From: Basidiobolus meristosporus CBS 931.73 | Taxonomy: Eukaryota > Basidiobolomycota > Basidiobolomycetes > Basidiobolales > Basidiobolaceae | Direction of reading: 5' to 3' | Length of the DNA stretch: 64,000 nucleotides | NCBI GenBank assembly: GCA_002104905.1 | Contig: MCFE01000075.1 | Span: 119,341 to 183,340 of the forward strand | Shown here: piece by piece, positions 54,375 to 64,000 of the stretch | Numbering within the stretch: the stretch's first letter is position 1 | Layout of the letters: each line of letters begins with the position of its first letter | Program-made: the position numbers and the translations under genes | Notes under the pieces: model-generated | Told to the model about the DNA's origin: nothing | Databases searched by the model: none | The model's input: the letters and a program-made list of their open reading frames with translations, nothing else

Positions 54375-54391
54375 TAACCCCTAACCCTAAC
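54375..54391 (-). repeat. Short interstitial telomere-like motif
   Basis: TAACCCCTAACCCTAAC, about 2.5 CCCTAA units, 17 bases after the GH17 stop and just before the mobile-DNA block. Its G-rich strand is on minus, opposite to the array at 57-64 kb. Confidence 0.5.
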
Positions 54392-55146: not shown

Positions 55147-55310
55147 TTTAGAAGGAGGCAGCTGGGAGCTGAAGTTGTAGGAGGAGTAACAGCCAGTAGC
55201 TTGTGGAGTGCCTGTTTTGCCAGGATAATTCTCTTCTTCAGGTGTGCTCCAGAGTCTAGTCCAGTAGGAAGGAAAGCAATGCCAAGATGTGTAGCAGATG
55301 TTGTAAAATC
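55147..55310 (-). pseudogene. Internal LINE reverse-transcriptase fragment inside copia sequence
   Basis: About 164 bases match the type A LINE RT C-terminal region (compare 58046-58200). The minus strand reads HLGIAFLPTGLDSGAHLKKR then ILAKQALHKLLAVTPPTTSA. It lacks the 3' end hairpin and any TTAGGG border, so it arrived by another route, such as recombination or repair patching. Confidence 0.7.
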
Positions 55311-55647
55311 TGTAATTCCACCTAAATATTCACCTAACTTAGTCACTTAGAGCATTACCTTCAAATCCTAGAGAATGCTGACCAAATTTCTTGTCAGGAT
55401 TTACTTAGAATATTTTCACCAAAATACCAGGTACCCAGAACATGAAAACTCTCAAAGTTGTCCAAACAGCCCCAAACATTGCACACATGTTCTTAGGACC
55501 TTTCTTGACCTACTCTACTTGTTTGTTAAGCCAAGACCATGTAAAAGTACAAATACTACTTTTACATTCCATTAATCATTAAGTGAAAAACACATAATCT
55601 ACATGTCCTCCCAATCACTTCCAATATCTCCAAGACTCTTACAACAG
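55311..55647 (+). repeat. Copia LTR (5' LTR side)
   Basis: Begins near TGTAAAATCTG and ends CTCTTACAACA. It is related throughout to the LTR at 9464-9895, but shorter and diverged. It is followed directly by copia integrase sequence without gag or protease. Confidence 0.7.
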
Positions 55648-56040
55648 TGTGGACCTATGCAAGATTTATCCTTAGGTGGGATGAAGTATACAATCATTTT
55701 TATTGATGATTATACAAAATTCACATGGGTCTACTTCATGGAGAAAGAGGAAGAAGCTCTGTCTAATTTCAGGGAGTTCAAAGCCATGGTGGAGAGAGAA
55801 ACTGGTGAAAAATTCAAGAAAATATGCTCTGACAATGGTGAAGAATATAGCCCAGAACTCTTCATCCACTTCTGCAAAATTCATGGGATAAAGCAAGAGA
55901 CAACTGTACCATACTCCCCACAGCAAAATGGAGTAGCAGAACATGCAAACAGACCAATAATTGATATGGCAAGATCTATGATCCATGATCAAATATTATC
56001 CTATAATTTTTGGGTGGAATCAGTTCCCTATGAAAAATTA
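55648..56040 (+). pseudogene. Copia integrase core fragment
   Basis: Plus-strand frame with MKYTIIFIDDYTKFTWVYFM, a later CSDNGEEY and PYSPQQNGVAEHANR, the D-D-E integrase core (third acidic Glu in GVAEHANR). It lacks the N-terminal zinc part and stops where repeat X begins. It is an internally deleted relic. Confidence 0.8.
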
Positions 56041-57366
56041 TTGAGATGATCCCATCAAAAGGCTGTCACAAAGTTAATGTCCCATGACTGAGAGGTACTG
56101 ATCATGTCAGGACTCTGTCTAGAGGCTGTTGAAAAATAATTGCACCCCAGATTTCACAAAAAACTTTGTCAAAATTTCTCATCACAACAATATGTAAGTG
56201 GCTTTTGATTGGTTCCCTGCCAATTTGCTCACTTTCTGATCCTGGACACTCTATTGCCTCCTACATTTGTGTGAATTGATTGGCTATTGCCTCTTTTTCA
56301 CACTCCTTACTTCCTGACTCAACTGTCTCTTACTTTTCATGCGTACATATTGATTTATTTCCGTTGAAACTTCAGTTGTACCTCAATGGCCAATTGTATT
56401 GACCTATACTAGTCTCTATACCCTACACCAACATTAAGCCCAGCCCCACACTCAACAAGTAACTCCATTAAAATCCTCCACTCAATAAGTATTTCTGCTG
56501 TAACGCTCTGGTTCCACAACTTTGGCAGGAACCCAACGGCTTTATGTCACTGTTCACTCACTGGTTCCCACATGTCCTGGACTTCAGCTGGCACTGCAAG
56601 GTCTAGCTCCTCATCTGCCAGTCTTTGCAATAAATCCTTGCAATATTCCAGTGCATTTTCTTGAGCACTGCTCTTGAAGAAGTGCTGCAACCTTTTGGTG
56701 TGCCTATTAATGTTCCAAAACTCCACTGAAGGCATTGTGATAGTCTTTTGAGCTCTTGACATTGTAGCCTTGTCTGTCAGTGGGATCTCCACTCTGTCAA
56801 CAATGGAGGCTGTGGAGGCTGTGGTAGACAAATTGCCTTTTTCAGCAAACTCATCTACCTTGCTGGAGTGTATCTCAACTGGCTGAGCTTCCAACTCTTG
56901 TGAAAACAGCTGTTTTCTTGTTGGTAATTCTTCTTGGCTATGATGGGATTCAGTGTGTGCCTGGCTTGTGGCGTTAATTGGCAAGAACTGCAGTTTTTTT
57001 TGCATGCCTCCCTGTCTCAGGCTTGGGTAGACATTTTTCCCTTTACCTTTTCCTTTATCACTGCTACTTTGTCTGAGTGCTTCTTGTAAAGAACTATGTT
57101 TTCTCCTGGATAAATTCTGCTCTGACGCATCTGTTTTGGCCTGCTTGTCCCTTGCTGGCACTCTTCTGACAACCTGATGTTTCTTTTCATCTTGTTTTGA
57201 GATCTCAACTGTAGTTGTGACGGGCTCCTGTAAAAGTGGCTGGTTTTTATCACTGCCAGGTCCTTCACTGCTACTTTGACTGGGTGCATCTTGAGTGGTA
57301 CTACGCTTTTTCCTTGATAAATGTTGTGCTGGTGCATCCATGTCTGCCTGCTTGTCCTTAATCGGC
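56041..57366 (-). mobile_element. Repeat X, copy 3, 5' end cut and capped with TTAGGG
   Basis: The non-coding end at 56041-56160 is the reverse complement of 8395-8522. The minus-strand frame at 57366-56547 gives the longest uninterrupted X protein piece (about 275 residues): Lys/Ser/Gln-rich repeats such as DAPAQHLSRKKRSTTQ, then ELEAQPVEIHSSKVDEFAEK and, near the end, VEFWNINRHTKRLQHFFKS. The element stops abruptly at 57366 after ATCGGC and is followed by TTA plus ten G. Copy 1 continues past the same point with other sequence, so this copy was broken here. Confidence 0.6.
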
Positions 57367-57379
57367 TTAGGGGGGGGGG
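57367..57379 (+). repeat. Telomeric junction 1 (TTA plus ten G)
   Basis: TTA followed by G10 joins broken repeat X to the 3' end of retroelement unit 1. It is the innermost border of the array. Confidence 0.8.
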
Positions 57380-58421
57380 AGACAGTCACCAACAGGTGAA
57401 ATCTTTATTTCAGTTGAAACAAAGAAGCCAGCGCTACTGTTGTAGCTTTGATATAAGAGTGTGTAGCTGAGGGGAATTTGTAGGTAAGTTAATAAGAAGT
57501 GATGATAGTTCTTCAGTGCTCAAGACACTGTTCAGTGGGAAGGGGGGTAGCAAGAGAGGTACAAATGACTTGTGAACAACATTAATGAGGGGAATATGAT
57601 AAGGATTGATATTCATCATAAAGGGAGTGTGCTGCTGCAGATATTGCTGCCAAAGGTCTGTCAAGTACTTCAGGTAGGCCAGCTTGGGTTTTTCTGACAG
57701 CAGAATATAGTGAGCAAACTTCTTGACTTCAGGATCTCCAAGTATAGTTCTCCAGCAGGAGTCAGGTGTAGTGTGGTGTGTTCTCTTCCAGGCCTTAATC
57801 AGTGGGTTGTTGCAGTGGTGAAGTCTGAGGTATAATCTGGTTCTAAGGTAGAGAAGTCTGAGCTTATAGGGCATAAACCCAAAAGCACCAAGAATAGCAT
57901 GTCTGTAGGGGCATTCAGGCAAATGAGGCACCAAGGAGGTAATACACCATACTGCAAACTTGTCAAGCTTAGTGCAGTCTCTAGAAGTAAGAGAGAGAAG
58001 TGGTAAGCCAAATTCCAGGACAGGGAAGACAAACTGCTTGAGTAGAAGGAGGCAGCTGGGAGCTGAAGTTGTAGGAGGAGTAACAGCCAGTAGCTTGTGG
58101 AGTGCCTGTCTTGCCAGGATAATTCTCTTCTTCAGGTGTGCTCCAGAGTCTAGTCCAGTTGGAAGGAAAGGAAAGCCAAGATATGTAGCAGAAACCTGAG
58201 CAGGTAGAGTGGAGTTCTCCAAGTTGATGGGAGAGCCCAAAGGTATTGTCTTTGCAATGGAAAGCTGGAGATTATTCTTCTGCAGATACTGGTGGATGGT
58301 CTGGGAGTCTTGTTGCACATTGGAGGAGGATATTCTGATGTCATCAGCAAAGAGAGTAACCAGGCAGTCAGCTGAGAGTCTTGGGAAATCATTCAGGAAG
58401 ATGGCAAACAGTATAGGACCA
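57380..58421 (-). mobile_element. Array unit 1: type A LINE, RT C-terminal part
   Basis: Minus strand, 5' truncated. The coding part (58421-57434) runs from GPILFAIFLNDFPRLSADCL through LFADDIRISSS (the FADD catalytic motif of RT) and a C-terminal region with RTRLYLRLHHCNNPLIKAWK to the stop. No zinc knuckle or RNase H is seen after RT. The 3' end has the shared box at 57421-57430, AAATAAAGATT and the TCACC/GGTGA hairpin. The 5' cut lies inside the RT, before GGGTTAG. Confidence 0.9.
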
Positions 58422-58434
58422 GGGTTAGGGGGGG
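58422..58434 (+). repeat. Telomeric junction 2 (GGGTTA plus seven G)
   Basis: Single telomeric repeat plus extra G between units 1 and 2. Confidence 0.85.
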
Positions 58435-60845
58435 AGACAGTCACCAACAGGTGAAATCTTTATTTCAGTTGAAACAAAGAAGCCAGCGCTACTGTTGTAG
58501 CTTTGATACAAGAGTGTGTAGCTGAGGGGAATTTGTAGGTAAGTTAATAAGAAGTGATGACAGTTCTTCAGTGCTCAAGACACTGTTCAGTGGGAAGGGG
58601 GGTAGCAAGAGAGGTAAGAATGACTTGTGAACAACATTAATGAGGGGAATATGATAAGGATTGATATTCATCATAAAGGGAGTGTGCTGCTGCAGATATT
58701 GCTGCCAAAGGTCTGTCAAGTACTTCAGGTAGGCCAGCTTGGGTTTTTCTGACTGCAGAATATAGTGAGCAAACTTCTTGACTTCAGGATCTCCAAGTAT
58801 AGTTCTCCAGCAGGAGCCAGGTGTTGTGTGGTGTGTTCTCTTCCAGGCCTTAATCAGTGGGTTGTTGCAGTTGTGAAGTCTGAGGTATAATCTGGTTCTA
58901 AGGTAGAGAAGTCTGAGCTTATAGGGCATAAACCCAAAAGCACCAAGAATAGCATGTCTGTAGGGGCATTCAGGCAAATGAGGCACCAAGGAGGTAATGC
59001 ACCATACTGCAAACTTGTCAAGCTTAGTGCAGTCTCTAGAAGTAAGAGAGAGAAGTGGTAAGCCAAATTCCAGGACAGGGAAGACAAACTGCTTGAGTAG
59101 AAGGAGGCAGCTGGGAGCTGAAGTTGTAGGAGGAGTAACGCCCAGTAGCTTGTGGAGTGCCTGTCTTGCCAGGATAATTCTCTTCTTCAGGTGTGCTCCA
59201 GAGTCTAGTCAAGTAGGAAGGAAAGGAAAGCCAAGATATGTAGCAGAAACCTGAGCAGGTAGAGTGGAGTTCTCCAAGTTGATGGGAGAGCCCAAAGGCA
59301 CTGTCTTTGCAATGGAAAGCTGGAGATTATTCTTCTGCAGATACTGGTGGATGGTCTGGGAGTCTTGTTGCACATTGGAGGAGGATATTCTGATGTCATC
59401 AGCAAAGAGAGTAACCAGGCAGTCAGCTGAGAGTCTTGGGAAATCATTCAGGAAGATGGCAAACAGTATAGGACCAAGCACAGAGCCTTGAACCACTCCA
59501 TTAGGAACTGAGAACACAGCTGATTGCTCACTTGGGTGCAGAATTCTTGCTTGTGGATCCAGAAACAGAGACCTGACAAGGAGGGTGAGAGAGGTACTGG
59601 AGAAGCATTGCAACTTGGACCAAAGCAGATTTCTGTCAACTGAATCAAAGGCCTTAGTAATATCAAACAGAACAGAGGGATACTTGCACTGGAGAGAGTG
59701 ATCTTGGCTAAGTATGACTGCATATTCCAAGGAGAGGCCAGGAACAAAGCCAAACTGTGCAGGATGAAACTTGAGGGAGTCAGAGTAGAGCTCCTGGGCA
59801 AGCAGAAGCTCAAACACCTTTCTGCAGGTGGGCAGCAGAGATATTGGCCTGTAGGAGCTAGGATCCAGGTGCTTTCCTTTACCCTTGTACAGTGGCAGAA
59901 CATTTGCAAGGGACCATTCCTCAGGAGTAGAAAGCTGGGCTGAGCATTGCTGAAACAGTGGAAGCTGAAGTGCAGACATGGCCTTGGTACTAGTCTTCAG
60001 AAGCTCATAAGAGATTGTGTCCACACCTGGAGCAGTAGAGTTGGGAAGCCTCTTGAGCACATTATGGATTCTCCTTTGATCAAGTGCAAGTGGGATGGGC
60101 AGAGTCTTGAAGTCAGGATGAAAGCCAGGAGTTGAGTACTGCTTTGTAGAGAAGAAGATGTTAGCCAGCTGTTCTGTTGAAGGTAACTTCCTGGAAGAGG
60201 GCCTCATTGCCCTGTAGAGTCTTGATACTGTTCTTGTTATAGAGTTGGAAGATTGCAGAGGCAAAGAACTCATAATATGATCCCAGAGCTGAGTATGCAG
60301 AGTGTGGTGAATTGCCTTGGAGTGGTGTATTGCTGTCAGGAGGAGTTTCTCTGTTTTTGGGTTAGGGAAACTCAGGTAGCTTTGTTGCATGGCTGAAACA
60401 ATGGATTCCCATTTTCTTGAGGTAACAGCAGTAGTGTTGCATGGTAGTGAGAGGGAGGCAGACACCAGAATCAGATGCTTCACAAAGAGCCAGGCATAGT
60501 TGAGATCATCTGGCAGAGAAAGTAGCAAACTGGCAAGCTTCAAGTAGTTCCCAAAGTCTTTCTTCTGATTCTTGGTAGCTTTGTGGGTGAGCACAGTAAG
60601 TTTTAGCAGCTTCCTCTTCACAACTGGTTGCATAGAAAGGGACCAGGCTGGGTGGTCAGAGGCCCTCAAGGATCCTAGCTCAGCTCCAGAGAATTGCTTA
60701 ACTTCATTCACAAAGTAGAGGGCAGCAGCAGAAGGGCAGATCCAGTCAACACATCTTTTCTCAGATTGAGCACCTAGTGCTAGCAGGTGGCTTTCTCTCA
60801 GGAAGTTCAGTAGGAATGTAGACCTTGGCTTCATTCTTGCAGTGA
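58435..60845 (-). mobile_element. Array unit 2: longest type A LINE copy
   Basis: About 2.4 kb, 5' truncated. The RT frame (60834-58489) has one nonsense codon at 59211-59209, where other copies read Gly of LPTGLD. In order: RASDHPAWSLSM near the start resembles the SDH end of an APE-type endonuclease; then a linker; RT motifs SYRPISLLPTCRKVFE, AQFGFVPGLSLEYA, VLFDITKAFDSVDRNLLW, GVVQGSVLGPILFAIFLND and LFADDIRI; then the thumb-like C-terminal region. So it is an APE-class LINE (jockey/Tad/I-like group), not a Penelope element, which normally lacks this endonuclease. A 3' UTR of 54 bases ends in the shared hairpin. Confidence 0.9.
58489..60834 (-). pseudogene. LINE ORF2 (endonuclease end + reverse transcriptase), one stop codon
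   Basis: Coding part of unit 2, about 780 codons, open at the 5' end because the element is cut there. The upstream part of the endonuclease is missing, so activity of this copy is not expected. Interrupted only by the TGA at 59209; the frame continues unchanged on both sides, which points to a young copy. Confidence 0.85.
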
Positions 60846-60858
60846 GGGTTAGGGGGGG
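60846..60858 (+). repeat. Telomeric junction 3 (GGGTTA plus seven G)
   Basis: Joins the cut 5' end of unit 2 to the 3' end of unit 3, which belongs to a different family. Confidence 0.85.
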
Positions 60859-61519
60859 ATGATAATCACCACAGGGTGAAATCTTTATTTAAATCATAAA
60901 TAAAGAAGCCAAATTTGAACATGAATATTTGAGATGCAGTAAGCCTACAAGATAAACTTGGACTTTGCTGTATCCCAAATATCCTCAATACTGAAGTCAA
61001 GTGGAGAATGTAGCAAAACTGCCTGCTCACTGTAGTGTTTCTTGAGGAAGTTTGTGACTTGAAGGGAAGGAGAGTTTTTCAACAAGCTGGTAAACCTTTT
61101 GAGGAGTTCTTTTTCCAGAGAGAATGGAACAAAGAGTGGAATGTCCAAATGATGTCTGAATATATGCTCTGAGAGCTCCCAATCCAGCATATTTTTGACT
61201 TCTTCTGTAAAATCTTCAACAATATCTTTGTCAAGAATAACTTCCAAGAGATCCCTGGCAATGTACTGAATGTTAATAATCTTAGGCATATGAATACCTA
61301 GGTCCTTGAGGTAGTTTCTTTGTTCTGAAATTGGGAGATAGCCAGCATTTCTGAAATAGCAAACAGCCCAATTGGCAGTGGGAGGAGTATCAGGGCTGAC
61401 AGGGAATCTTCTTCTGGCTTTAGGGTGCACTGGCTTAGGTGACTGTCTTATTGAAAGAGCAGCTGGCTTTGGATGAGCTTGAAGTGCTTGGGAGTATGTC
61501 TGAGTATGAATAACAGGAG
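60859..61519 (-). mobile_element. Array unit 3: type B, ORF1-like only
   Basis: About 660 bases, 5' truncated. The minus strand encodes an open-ended protein of about 190 residues (61519-60945) with a Pro/Lys-rich lead (KPVHPKARRRFPVSPDTPPT) and a folded part containing NWAVCYFRNAGYLPISEQRN, IINIQYIARDLLEVILDKDI, FTSLLKNSPSLQVTNFLKKH and LLHSPLDFSI. A stop and an 86-base 3' UTR with hairpin follow directly, so no RT lies downstream. It is homologous in outline to unit 7. Probably a nucleic-acid-binding ORF1/Gag-like protein (inference). Confidence 0.8.
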
Positions 61520-61534
61520 TTAGGGTAGGGGGGG
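61520..61534 (+). repeat. Telomeric junction 4 (TTAGGGTA plus seven G)
   Basis: One repeat plus a shortened TA-G7 between units 3 and 4. Confidence 0.8.
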
Positions 61535-61678
61535 AGACAGTCACCAACAGGTGAAATCTTTATTTCAGTTGAAACAAAGAAGCCAGCGCTACTGTTGTAG
61601 CTTTGATACAAGAGTGTGTAGCTGAGGGGAATCTGTAGGTAAGTTAATGAGAAGTGATGATAGTTCTTCAGTGCTCAA
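61535..61678 (-). mobile_element. Array unit 4: short type A 3' stub
   Basis: 144 bases of the type A 3' end (hairpin, poly(A) signal, the box and the last codons), cut at GTGCTCAA and capped by GGGTTAG. Confidence 0.88.
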
Positions 61679-61688
61679 GGGTTAGGGG
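61679..61688 (+). repeat. Telomeric junction 5 (GGGTTA plus four G)
   Basis: Separates unit 4 from the type C stub. Confidence 0.8.
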
Positions 61689-61860
61689 AGGGAAAGTCAC
61701 TAAAGTAGGTGAAATCTTTATTTGATTTCAGACAAGTCTAACTACAAATAAAGAAGCCAGCTGGGAATCGAAGATTCCCAAAGTAAATACTAAGTTGAAT
61801 ATGAATATATCTAAGCTAAAGTTAAGGCAGTATCCCAGAGTACACTGGAGTTCAGGTTCA
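61689..61860 (-). mobile_element. Array unit 5: short type C 3' stub
   Basis: 172 bases nearly identical to the 3' end of unit 7 (62951 onward), cut at GGTTCA. Its hairpin stem has one changed base (CACT for CACC). Confidence 0.85.
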
Positions 61861-61897
61861 GGGTTAGGGGGAGACAGTCACCAACAGGGGGGGGGGG
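61861..61897 (+). repeat. Telomeric junction 6 with a 15-base aborted copy and an 11-G run
   Basis: GGGTTA plus G5, then AGACAGTCACCAACA (61872-61886), which is only the outermost 3' end of type A, then G11, then a new full type A start. No TTA lies between the stub and the next unit. Confidence 0.85.
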
Positions 61898-62913
61898 AGA
61901 CAGTCACCAACAGGTGAAATCTTTATTTCAGTTGAAACAAAGAAGCCAGCGCTACTGTTGTAGCTTTGATACAAGAGTGTGTAGCTGAGGGAAATTTGTA
62001 GGTAAGTTAATAAGAAGTGATGACAGTTCTTCAGTGCTCAAGACACTGTTCAGTGGGAAGGGGGGTAGCAAGAGAGGTAAGAATGACTTGTGAACAACAT
62101 TAATGAGGGGAATGTGATAAGGATTGATATTCATCATAAAGGGAGTGTGCTGCTGCAGATATTGCTGCCAAAGGTCTGTCAAGTACTTCAGGTAGGCCAG
62201 CTTGGGTTTTTCTGACTGCAGAATAAATTCTGCAAACTTCTTGACTTCAGGATCTCCAAGTATAGTTCTCCAGCAGGAGCCAGGTGTTGTGTGGTGTGTT
62301 CTCTTCCAGGCCTTAATCAGTGGGTTGTTGCAGTGGTGAAGTCTGAGATATAATCTGGTTCTAAGGTAGAGAAGTCTGATCTTATAGGGCATAAACCCAA
62401 AAGCACCAAGAATAGCATGTCTGTAGGGGCATTCAGGCAAATGAGGCACCAAGGAGGTAATGCACCATACTGCAAACTTGTCAAGCTTAGTGCAGTCTCT
62501 AGAAGTAAGAGAGAGAAGTGGTAAGCCAAATTCCAGTACAGGGAAGACAAACTGCTTGAGTAGAAGAAGGCAGCTGGGAGCTGAAGTTGTAGGAGGAGTA
62601 ACAGCCAGTAGCTTGTGGAGTGCCTGTCTTGCCAGGATAATTCTCTTCTTCAGGTGTGCTCCAGAGTCTAGTCCAGTAGGAAGGAAAGCAAAGCCAAGAT
62701 ATGTAGCAGAAACCTGAGCAGGTAGAGTGGAGTTCTCTAAGGTGATGGGAGAGCCCAAAGGTACTGTCTTTGCAATGGAAAGCTGGAGATTATTCTTCTG
62801 CAGATACTGGTGGATGGTCTGGGAGTCTTGTTGCACATTGGAGGAGGATATTCTGATGTCATCAGCAAAGAGAGTAACCAGGCAGTCAGCTGAGAGTCTT
62901 GGGAAATCATTCA
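61898..62913 (-). mobile_element. Array unit 6: type A LINE, RT C-terminal part
   Basis: About 1 kb. Intact frame 62836-61952 and on to the cut; same content as unit 1 (DDIRISSS near the cut, then the C-terminal region). The 5' cut is at CATTCA, before GGGTTAG. Differs from units 1 and 2 by scattered substitutions, mostly outside indels. Confidence 0.9.
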
Positions 62914-62950
62914 GGGTTAGGGGTTAGGGGTTAGGGTTAGGGTTAGGGGG
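62914..62950 (+). repeat. Telomeric tract 7, about five repeats
   Basis: GGGTTAGGGGTTAGGGGTTA followed by two TTAGGG and a final TTAGGGGG. The longest telomeric run in the window; TTAGGGG variants are mixed with TTAGGG. Confidence 0.95.
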
Positions 62951-63913
62951 AGGGAAAGTCACCAAAGTAGGTGAAATCTTTATTTGATTTCAGACAAGTC
63001 TAACTACAAATAAAGAAGCCAGCTGGGAATAGAAGATTCCCAAAGTAAACACTAAGTTGAATATGAATAAATCTAAGCTAAAGTTAAGGCAGTATCCCAG
63101 AGTACACTGGAGTTCAGGTTCATGGGGGAGTGAAGTAGATAAGCTTGAGAGATATAATAATCTTTTAAGAAGTGGGTAACAGCAGGTGAAGGGGAGTTTT
63201 TGATAAGTGAAGTGAATCTTGAGATCAGAGATTCCTCTAATGAGAAGGTCTTGTAAACTGGAGAATCAGGAAACTCTTTGAAGGCATGGTCAGTAGGTTC
63301 CCAGTAAAACTGGTCAGAGACATTTTGAGAGAATTGTTTAGCAATACTTTTGTCAAGTACTACCTCCAGAGTGTGATGGTTGATAAATCTCATGTTGACA
63401 ATCTTGGATAAGTTGTAACCTTGTTGCTTGAGATACATCCTATGCTGAGATATGGGAATAAACTCCACATTGGCAAAGTAGCAGACAGCCCAGTCAGTAG
63501 CAGGAGGCAAATCAGAAGTGGCAGGAAACTTTCTTTTGGTCTTGGGAGGAGCAGCAGGATGTCTTGAGGAAGCAGGAACAGACTTTTTGACAACTTCAGA
63601 GTAGGAAGAGTGAGCAGGAGCAGATGATTCTTGAGGAGTCTTGTTGGCAGGAAGAGTTGTCTCAGGGACAATAGATTCTTGCAGATCAGAGAAGGCAGAA
63701 AAGAGCTTTTGAACTTGTTTCTTGAGTAGAGCATTTTCAGCTTCAACAAGTGCAAGCCTTTCCTCAAGGAAAGAAATCTGAAGGGAATGGAGTGAAGGCA
63801 TAAGAAATAAGAAGAAGAGGGTAAGATGGGGTGGGTGGGTGGGAAAATTAGCAGGGAGAAGAGAAGGAAGGAGCAAAAATTCCAGAAGTCAGAATTTATA
63901 GATGGATGGACAA
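62951..63913 (-). mobile_element. Array unit 7: type C, ORF1-like only, perhaps nearly full length
   Basis: About 960 bases: 122-base 3' UTR, the ORF1-like gene, and about 110 bases before its likely start. No RT sequence. It may be nearly complete at the 5' end because the frame has its own ATG, but the promoter region cannot be judged. Confidence 0.85.
63073..63801 (-). CDS. ORF1-like coiled-coil protein of the telomeric retroelement (type C)
   Basis: From the ATG at 63801, 242 residues. It starts MPSLHSLQISFLEERLALVE and continues as a Leu-rich coiled coil to about residue 45 (ENALLKKQVQKLFSAFSDLQ). A Ser/Pro/Lys-rich linker follows (HPAAPPKTKRKFPATSDLPP), then a folded domain shared with unit 3: WAVCYFANVEFIPISQHRM, VNMRFINHHTLEVVLDKSIA, FTSLIKNSPSPAVTHFLKDY, LLHSPMNLNSS. 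A coiled coil plus a basic linker and a compact domain is the usual layout of LINE ORF1 proteins, which trimerise and bind RNA. No CCHC knuckle is seen. An upstream in-frame start at 63876 adds a hydrophobic Pro/Phe lead and is less likely. Confidence 0.75.
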   Translation of the reverse strand: MPSLHSLQISFLEERLALVEAENALLKKQVQKLFSAFSDLQESIVPETTLPANKTPQESSAPAHSSYSEVVKKSVPASSRHPAAPPKTKRKFPATSDLPPATDWAVCYFANVEFIPISQHRMYLKQQGYNLSKIVNMRFINHHTLEVVLDKSIAKQFSQNVSDQFYWEPTDHAFKEFPDSPVYKTFSLEESLISRFTSLIKNSPSPAVTHFLKDYYISQAYLLHSPMNLNSSVLWDTALTLA

Positions 63914-63926
63914 GGGTTAGGGGGGG
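63914..63926 (+). repeat. Telomeric junction 8 (GGGTTA plus seven G)
   Basis: Joins unit 7 to unit 8. Confidence 0.85.
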
Positions 63927-64000
63927 AGGAAAGTCACCAAGTGGTGAAATCTTTATTTACTTATGACAAGTATCTAAAGAAGCCAAGTTAATCTGAAGTT
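63927..64000 (-). mobile_element. Array unit 8: type D 3' end, runs off the window
   Basis: Only the 3' end is visible: hairpin with loop AAGT (plus strand), ATCTTTATTT and the AAAGAAGCCA box, then sequence unlike types A-C. A fourth family, or a diverged type C. Confidence 0.8.

What the first reader, a model, noticed from the sequence alone, without database searches (positions are those of the whole stretch)
57367..64000. Head-to-tail array of telomere-attached retroelements in a fungus
Eight units plus one aborted stub lie in the same orientation, each joined by its RNA 3' end to TTA plus a G run and cut at its 5' end just before new TTAGGG repeats. The G-rich strand points right, so the array faces a chromosome end. 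The 3'-end-inward orientation is that expected if the chromosome's own G-strand 3' end primes reverse transcription, as in Drosophila HeT-A/TART, rotifer Athena elements and, with a different enzyme type, Magnaporthe MoTeRs. Here the RT is LINE-type with an APE-like tail. I do not know of a described system with this combination.
Basis: partly seen in the sequence, partly recalled or inferred. Interest (0 to 1): 0.93.

Follow-up and report, generated by a model that had tools for sequence, protein, structure and literature searches.

The report
Telomere-capping LINE, gag-only and SINE-like elements
Chromosome ends of a fungus (almost certainly Basidiobolus meristosporus) carry stacked retroelements whose RNA 3' ends point inward and are joined to about one telomere repeat, which suggests that they copy themselves onto the bare chromosome end beside telomerase, with another enzyme type than the fungal telomere elements found in print.

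Summary
The window is the last 64 kb of a contig and ends in eight same-orientation units plus a stub. The genome holds 1,748 exact copies of the shared 15-base tail core. I read 141: 122 have TTAGGG within 50 nt of their RNA 3' end, against 19 of 354 control stretches. On contigs over 40 kb, 74 of 77 lie within 25 kb of the end they face; the three exceptions are in C726 and C558. Contig C424 (312,558 bp) has a unit directly under the TTAGGG cap at both ends, facing outward. Tail families: A, a LINE with ORF1, UGA-CUA, ORF2 and an N-terminal APE-like endonuclease; B and C, ORF1 only where read; D, a 523-bp SINE-like unit. They share a 3' hairpin and C-run. A telomerase domain is encoded. Best reading: the G-strand 3' end primes reverse transcription and telomerase re-caps the cDNA. 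It works like MoTeR/HeT-A arrays, but no C-terminal restriction-like endonuclease was found and telomerase is kept. Whether telomerase, template jumping or a nick makes each junction is unresolved; no structure model or clade tree was obtained. New variant of a known kind.

The parts
57367..57379 (+). Base of the array: TTAGGGGGGGGGG joined directly to a broken interspersed repeat (..AATCGGC|TTAGGG)
   Evidence: the three other genomic copies of this repeat that I read continue past the point
57380..58421 (-). Unit 1, family A (LINE), 5'-truncated, ORF2 C-terminal part
   Evidence: 98.8% to the A reference cut from L049
58422..58434 (+). Junction tract GGGTTAGGGGGGG
58435..60846 (-). Unit 2, family A; carries RT (RVT_1) and the C-terminal end of the APE-like endonuclease; ORF2 frame interrupted near 59209 in this copy
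60859..61519 (-). Unit 3, family B: ORF1-type frame (within 60945-61547) beside the tail, 5'-truncated; no RT between ORF1 and tail
61535..61679 (-). Unit 4, family A, short
61689..61860 (-). Unit 5, family C, short
61872..61886 (-). Aborted stub of a family A tail; the next unit grows on it through a G-run without TTA
61898..62913 (-). Unit 6, family A, 5'-truncated
62914..62950 (+). Longest telomeric tract in the window array: five TTAGGG, some with an extra G
62951..63913 (-). Unit 7, family C: ORF1-only unit (frame 63073-63876)
63914..63926 (+). Junction tract GGGTTAGGGGGGG
63927..64000 (-). Unit 8, family D (SINE-like), cut by the contig end

Best explanation
A telomere-resident retroelement consortium. 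The autonomous element (family A, about 4.56 kb) encodes ORF1 (by eye a CxxC zinc-ribbon-like motif and a coiled coil, then a C-terminal domain) and, after a single in-frame UGA-CUA, ORF2 (APE-like endonuclease plus LINE reverse transcriptase); ORF2 would be made as an ORF1-ORF2 fusion by stop readthrough (inferred). Its RNA ends in AAUAAAG..UUUCACC-loop-GGUGA..CUCCCCC; the enzyme recognises this hairpin (inferred). The C-run, and probably a trailing UAA, pairs with the G-rich 3' end of an eroded or broken chromosome whose last bases are about one TTAGGG, and that 3' end primes first-strand synthesis (inferred from the layout). The cDNA grows outward, often stops early, and telomerase caps it with TTAGGG from a seed of a few matching bases (inferred). 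The next erosion exposes a new short seed and the cycle repeats, which gives head-to-tail arrays. Families B and C (ORF1 only where read) and D (SINE-like) carry the same hairpin tail and are presumably copied in trans. Shown by sequence: anatomy, orientation, terminal location, junctions of about one repeat, caps, repeated 5' ends. Inferred: end priming, readthrough, trans copying, role of telomerase.
For: Core copies 1,589 + 159; 122 of 141 read have TTAGGG within 50 nt, 74 of 77 on contigs over 40 kb are near the end they face. 103 of 116 parsed junctions (of 118 tallied) hold one or no TTA unit next to the G-run (21 none, 82 one, 10 two, 3 three), G-run 3-11, while terminal caps are 156-247 nt at 11 of 17 ends. 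The window array starts inside a repeat that continues in the three other copies read. Of 71 junctions whose proximal unit I could identify, 52 units are truncated and 19 reach a repeated 5' end (15 D, 4 A). Genome-wide 214 exact D 5' ends, 170 followed at once by TTAGGG. C424 has a full-length D directly under the cap at both ends. Overlap between cDNA end and telomere phase averages 2.47 nt in 38 truncated junctions against 0.75 simulated; no simulated mean of 5,000 reached it. TGA CTA between the ORFs in 16 of 16 loci; first Met of ORF2 at residue 142; UGA-CUA suffices for readthrough in Ustilago maydis (PMC4207609, passages). D126, N128, D171, D201, H202 of the endonuclease are invariant in 31 aligned proteins. 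TCACC arm of the hairpin in 113 of 118. Telomerase_RBD match over the cut-off at C880 in two pieces, one with a TAG inside.
Against: The endonuclease's second half is conserved (57-74 identical of 113-130 residues in four relatives), which suggests that a nick may still be used; pure end priming would not need it. 14 of 52 truncated junctions have extra bases between unit and telomere phase; leaving them out of the seed mean favours the result. 21 of 116 junctions lack TTA next to the G-run and 19 of 141 tails lack TTAGGG within 50 nt, one of these with only 6 nt of flank. Internal arrays exist: C726 and C558. Ten of 23 contig ends read have no cap. Recombination between ends can copy arrays; I did not separate that from new additions. 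No expression or enzyme data.
Confidence: 0.6

Rival explanations
1. Template jumping: the TTAGGG at each junction is not made by telomerase but copied from the RNA 3' end (..CUCCCCCUAA), as the reverse transcriptase jumps from the 5' end of one RNA to the 3' end of the next, or primes on any 3' end with a few matching bases.
For: The commonest junction is exactly one TTA plus the G-run (82 of 116); full-length D ends are followed at once by TTAGGG in 170 of 214 copies; junctions with TA, A or only G before the run, and the stub-to-unit junction, need no telomerase.
Against: 13 of 116 junctions have two or three TTA units, the window has one tract of five repeats, and the outermost unit at 11 of 17 ends carries 156-247 nt of TTAGGG. 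Breaks inside a genomic repeat and inside LTR-like sequence (by eye) are chromosome breaks, not RNA 5' ends.
Confidence: 0.2
2. Target-primed insertion by the APE-like endonuclease into duplex telomere repeats, as in Bombyx TRAS/SART, with later loss of most repeats on either side.
For: APE-type residues are conserved, and TRAS1 endonuclease nicks telomeric repeats (PMC7265360, passages).
Against: SART1 needs at least three repeats (same passages), but 103 of 116 junctions have one or none. At the column of the catalytic Glu the lineage has Asp (3 of 3 that cover it), while 25 of 25 other covering proteins have Glu. The window array begins on broken non-telomeric sequence.
Confidence: 0.13
3. 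Arrays spread mainly by recombination or break-induced replication between chromosome ends; retrotransposition onto ends is rare or ancient.
For: MoTeR arrays expand this way (PMC7367193, passages); L042 has two successive A pieces of about 120 bp with nearly the same break, followed by a third longer one.
Against: Truncation points of the units are scattered and tail families alternate; D 5' ends are precise and recur on many contigs; the 80 RT matches scored are 98-100% identical and 78 have no stop in the matched stretch.
Confidence: 0.07

Closest known systems
MoTeR1/MoTeR2 of Magnaporthe (Pyricularia) oryzae; also FoTeR (Fusarium) and Cnl1 (Cryptococcus)
   Same: Fungal. MoTeR: head-to-tail arrays, 5' ends nearest the chromosome end, TTAGGG tracts from half a repeat to more than 20, truncated copies, internal relics, a non-autonomous partner, host with TERT (PMC7367193 and PMC8381367, passages). 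FoTeR: 5' end toward the terminus (PMC12857005, abstract and passages). Cnl1: arrays at chromosome arm ends flanked by telomeric repeats (PMC12810828, passages).
   Different: FoTeR, MoTeR1 and Cnl1 are grouped by a restriction-like endonuclease domain. Here two ORFs, an N-terminal APE-like endonuclease, no CCHC or PD-(D/E)xK pattern found after the RT, and ORF1-only and SINE-like partners.
HeT-A/TART/TAHRE of Drosophila
   Same: Elements stacked on the chromosome end; a gag-only element (HeT-A) alongside an RT element (passages); 3' end inward (recalled).
   Different: Drosophila lacks telomerase; here TTAGGG caps and a telomerase domain are present. No oligo(A) is seen at the 3' junctions printed.
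TRAS/SART of Bombyx
   Same: Non-LTR elements with APE-type endonuclease tied to telomeric repeats.
   Different: They insert inside the repeats, and SART1 needs three or more (PMC7265360, passages); here mostly one repeat or less per junction.
Athena elements of bdelloid rotifers
   Same: Telomere-associated retroelements.
   Different: Penelope-like and endonuclease-deficient (PMC3846280, start of abstract in the listing); here the RT is LINE-type with endonuclease motifs.

Membership tests
Non-LTR (LINE) retrotransposon | RVT_1 reverse transcriptase related to LINE ORF2p | tested here: met
   Pfam RVT_1 2.6e-25, above cut-off; best PDB match L1 ORF2p 5.3e-13
APE-type LINE | N-terminal EEP endonuclease with catalytic residues | tested here: inconclusive
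   PF14529 and PF03372 match below cut-off (0.0023, 0.011); GDxN, D171 and SDH residues invariant in 31; Glu column is Asp in the lineage; lineage-only profile finds no PDB AP endonuclease at E<=1, the mixed profile of 31 does (1vyb 1.7e-22, 1wdu 6.9e-9)
MoTeR/CRE group | C-terminal CCHC plus restriction-like endonuclease | tested here: not met
   no CCHC-like or PD..(D/E)xK pattern after the RT (simple patterns); none in Pfam
MoTeR/CRE group | terminal head-to-tail arrays, 5' end outward, joined to TTAGGG | tested here: met
   with exceptions C726 and C558
HeT-A/TART system | replaces telomerase; no short telomere repeats | tested here: not met
   TTAGGG caps, Telomerase_RBD at C880
HeT-A/TART system | gag-only partner copied in trans | tested here: inconclusive
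   ORF1-only C units in 8 of 8 fetched copies plus the window; the eight were picked from the better of 148 hit rows; trans copying not tested
TRAS/SART | insertion inside telomere repeat tracts (SART1: three or more repeats) | tested here: not met
   103 of 116 junctions have one or no TTA unit
TRAS/SART | R1 clade | not tested
   no labelled clade references on hand; no tree built
Athena / Penelope-like | PLE-type RT, endonuclease-deficient | tested here: not met
   LINE-type RT and endonuclease motifs
tRNA-derived SINE (family D) | tRNA-like head with A and B boxes | tested here: inconclusive
   ARAGORN none; Rfam with E<=1 gave one chance-level snoRNA match and no tRNA; a B-box motif as I recall it (GGTTCAAATCC) is present by eye in L042 and L150

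The most novel reading that the evidence does not exclude
A second, independent invention in fungi of chromosome-end extension by retroelements, in which an APE-type LINE, ORF1-only elements and a SINE-like RNA are all copied onto the bare G-strand 3' end and share the upkeep of chromosome ends with telomerase. The SINE-like unit under both caps of C424 would be a SINE used as a chromosome-end extender, and the ORF1-ORF2 fusion by UGA-CUA readthrough an unusual expression mode for a LINE.
Probability: 0.45. Interest if true: 0.88.

Novelty: new variant of a known kind. Interest (0 to 1): 0.74.

Why it matters
The fungal telomere elements that I found in print (MoTeR, FoTeR, Cnl1) belong to one group with a restriction-like endonuclease; [quoted passage not shown] An APE-like lineage in Basidiobolomycota, with ORF1-only and SINE-like partners and with telomerase, would show that a HeT-A-like layout can arise beside a telomerase. 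The genome offers over a thousand tails to test whether end priming, telomerase healing or template jumping builds such arrays.

Tried and rejected
Considered and set aside: assembly artefact (same junction logic on many contigs and at both ends of C424); a single repeated element (four tail families in the window, further variants elsewhere); TTAGGG by chance (19 of 354 control stretches). Tried without result: ARAGORN and Rfam on the D unit; a PDB match for the endonuclease with the lineage-only profile; structure prediction of ORF2 (no job ever started). No clade tree was built, for want of labelled references. My first pattern for junctions parsed 61 of 118; the second parsed 116. A script stopped on an index error after printing the junction tallies; the simulation was rerun with those tallies typed in. 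My pattern missed L115, which on rereading also has TGA CTA.

Literature: searches. 'Basidiobolus' with 'telomere' gave 3 papers, with 'retrotransposon' 9 papers, 7 listed; no listed title or abstract start describes such elements, and of these I read passages of PMC10234402 only. The library holds open-licence papers, so absence is weak. Facts on HeT-A, A/B boxes and LINE groups not tied to a call are recalled.

Full report
Place and organism. The window is G000:C1035:119341-183340, the right end of a 183,340-bp contig of an 89.0-Mb, 1,311-contig genome. Two close relatives of the ORF2 protein bear names, both of Basidiobolus meristosporus CBS 931.73 (K493DRAFT_353650, 98% identical over 26% of the query; K493DRAFT_348252, 64% over 44%).

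The array. From 57367 to 64000 there are eight units and a stub, all with the coding sense on the minus strand and the RNA 3' end on the left, toward the chromosome body. The first unit is joined by TTAGGGGGGGGGG to a repeat that the search found at 39 other places among 40 scored candidates (of 4,285). In the three other copies that I read, the repeat runs on past the junction point. So the base of the array looks like a broken chromosome end.

Genome-wide. The 15-base core shared by the tails occurs 1,589 times forward and 159 times reverse. First tally: 118 unique copies, namely the first 100 listed (contigs C1-C83), the 8 of the window and 10 in other fetched stretches. TTAGGG lies within 50 nt on the RNA 3' side in 86 of 100, 8 of 8 and 8 of 10; in control stretches of the same flanks in 19 of 354. 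With 23 tails read later in stretches fetched for other reasons, the count is 122 of 141, one of them with only 6 nt of flank. On contigs over 40 kb (77 copies, 27 contigs) 74 lie within 25 kb of the end they face; one copy in C726 (59 kb) and two in C558 (98 kb) do not. Independently, 80 RT matches were scored among 868 candidates; I know contig lengths for 43 rows, 37 of them on contigs over 40 kb, and 36 of these are within 8.4 kb of the end they face; the exception is C726. The C726 copy has the usual style (A tail joined through TTAGGGGGGG to a D 5' end). C726 and C558 look like internalised relics, as described for MoTeRs (PMC7367193, passages).

Both ends of a contig. C424 (312,558 bp) starts with (CCCTAA)n, then a full-length D unit on the minus strand, and ends with a full-length D unit on the plus strand followed by TTAGGG repeats (138 and 204 nt of perfect repeats). 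Against this, C80 and C979, fetched in the same call, have no cap at either end. In all 13 of 23 contig ends read are capped (11 of 17).

Family A. As found in L049 it is about 4.56 kb, with ORF1 of 523 codons (stop to stop, first Met at codon 22) and ORF2 of 922 codons, separated by one TGA followed by CTA in the same frame. TGA CTA is present in 16 of 16 loci examined (15 by pattern, the sixteenth on rereading). ORF2 has no Met before residue 142; one relative, P0001, is listed with a Met at the start of ORF2, so readthrough need not hold for all. UGA-CUA is sufficient for readthrough in Ustilago maydis (PMC4207609, passages). ORF2 has RVT_1 above cut-off and two endonuclease families below cut-off. 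Five endonuclease residues (D126, N128, D171, D201, H202) are invariant in 31 aligned proteins. At the column of the catalytic Glu (residue 33) L049, P0001 and P0003 have Asp, while 25 of 25 other proteins that cover it have Glu. A profile of the lineage alone finds no solved AP endonuclease, so the domain is diverged; the mixed profile of 31 does, in part because of its other members. Simple patterns found no C-terminal CCHC or PD-(D/E)xK motif.

Families B, C and D. Family C carries one frame of 271 codons beside the tail in 8 of 8 fetched copies and in the window; the eight were chosen from the better of 148 hit rows (144 of 560 candidates scored). Its protein matches the C-terminal part of A's ORF1 (35% over 163 residues) and B's (48% over 153). 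All eight C copies show at least the start of a second copy of a 5' unit of about 101 bp, six of them two or more units with their TATA-like motif (period measured in L152). These may be promoter monomers that buffer against 5' loss (inference). Family D is a 523-bp unit without a stop-free stretch over 59 codons and with a precise 5' end: 214 exact matches of that end in the genome, 170 followed at once by TTAGGG. A B-box motif as I recall it is present; tRNA tools found nothing.

Tail. The families share, in RNA sense, AAATAAAGATTTCAC, a loop, GGTGA and a C-run. The core itself was my search key, so only the far arm is evidence: TCACC is in place in 113 of 118, with loops of different length and sequence between families. 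Five tails fold into the hairpin, z-scores -3.83 to -0.36, the last not distinct from shuffles. The set contains a typing error and is illustrative.

Junctions. In 116 parsed junctions of the 118, the number of TTA(GGG) units next to the tail is 0, 1, 2, 3 in 21, 82, 10, 3 cases; the G-run varies from 3 to 11. Terminal caps are 156-247 nt at 11 of 17 contig ends; 6 have none, the window's among them. In 71 junctions the proximal unit is recognisable: 52 truncated, 19 at a repeated 5' end (15 D, 4 A). In 38 of the 52 truncated junctions the cDNA end shares on average 2.47 nt with the telomere phase, against 0.75 in a simulation on A and C sequence; no simulated mean of 5,000 reached it. The 14 with extra bases were left out, which favours the result. 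This fits either telomerase seeding or microhomology priming by the element's own RT.

Mechanism. The 3' end inward, the C-run facing TTAGGG, the variable G-run, truncation at the outer end and the junctions of about one repeat are what is expected if an eroded G-strand end primes reverse transcription and telomerase re-caps the product. A telomerase RNA-binding domain over the cut-off is encoded at C880 in two pieces, one with a TAG inside the match. Template jumping would explain the one-repeat junctions equally well and is not excluded; an endonuclease nick in long telomere tracts fits less well.

Novelty. The layout is that of MoTeR, FoTeR and Cnl1, which are grouped by a restriction-like endonuclease, and resembles HeT-A. 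The combination found here (APE-like LINE, ORF1-only and SINE-like partners, UGA-CUA between the ORFs, telomerase) was not met in the searches named in Tried and rejected. I file it as a new variant of a known kind.

Noticed in passing
window 55149-55298: A 150-bp fragment of the family A ORF2 region (97.3% identical) lies outside the array, without tail or TTAGGG beside it by eye; a relic or repair patch.
   Followed up: partly
window 56026-57366: Interspersed repeat found at 39 other places (40 candidates scored), broken at the array base; the neighbouring frame 55603-56049 reads by eye like a Copia-type integrase fragment.
   Followed up: partly
whole assembly G000: Telomere repeats are strongly biased to one contig strand (7,428 forward, 81 reverse for four repeats), as are the tails (1,589 to 159); probably contig orientation in the assembly, cause unknown.
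   Followed up: no
L151-L158: Tandem 5' units of about 101 bp with a TATA-like motif and an internal CCTAACCC in the ORF1-only family C, reminiscent of promoter monomers.
   Followed up: partly
L042 3460-5810; C1 near 323355: LTR-like sequence (Gypsy-like by eye in L042) inside array units, broken off directly at the next TTAGGG junction: a sign of erosion within arrays.
   Followed up: partly
L047, L048 5' region: The family A 5' leader contains two internal CCCTAA repeats (GCGCGCAACCCTAACCCTAATTTTG).
   Followed up: no
window 54379-54390: Two telomere repeats in reverse orientation (CCCTAACCCTAA), internal.
   Followed up: no
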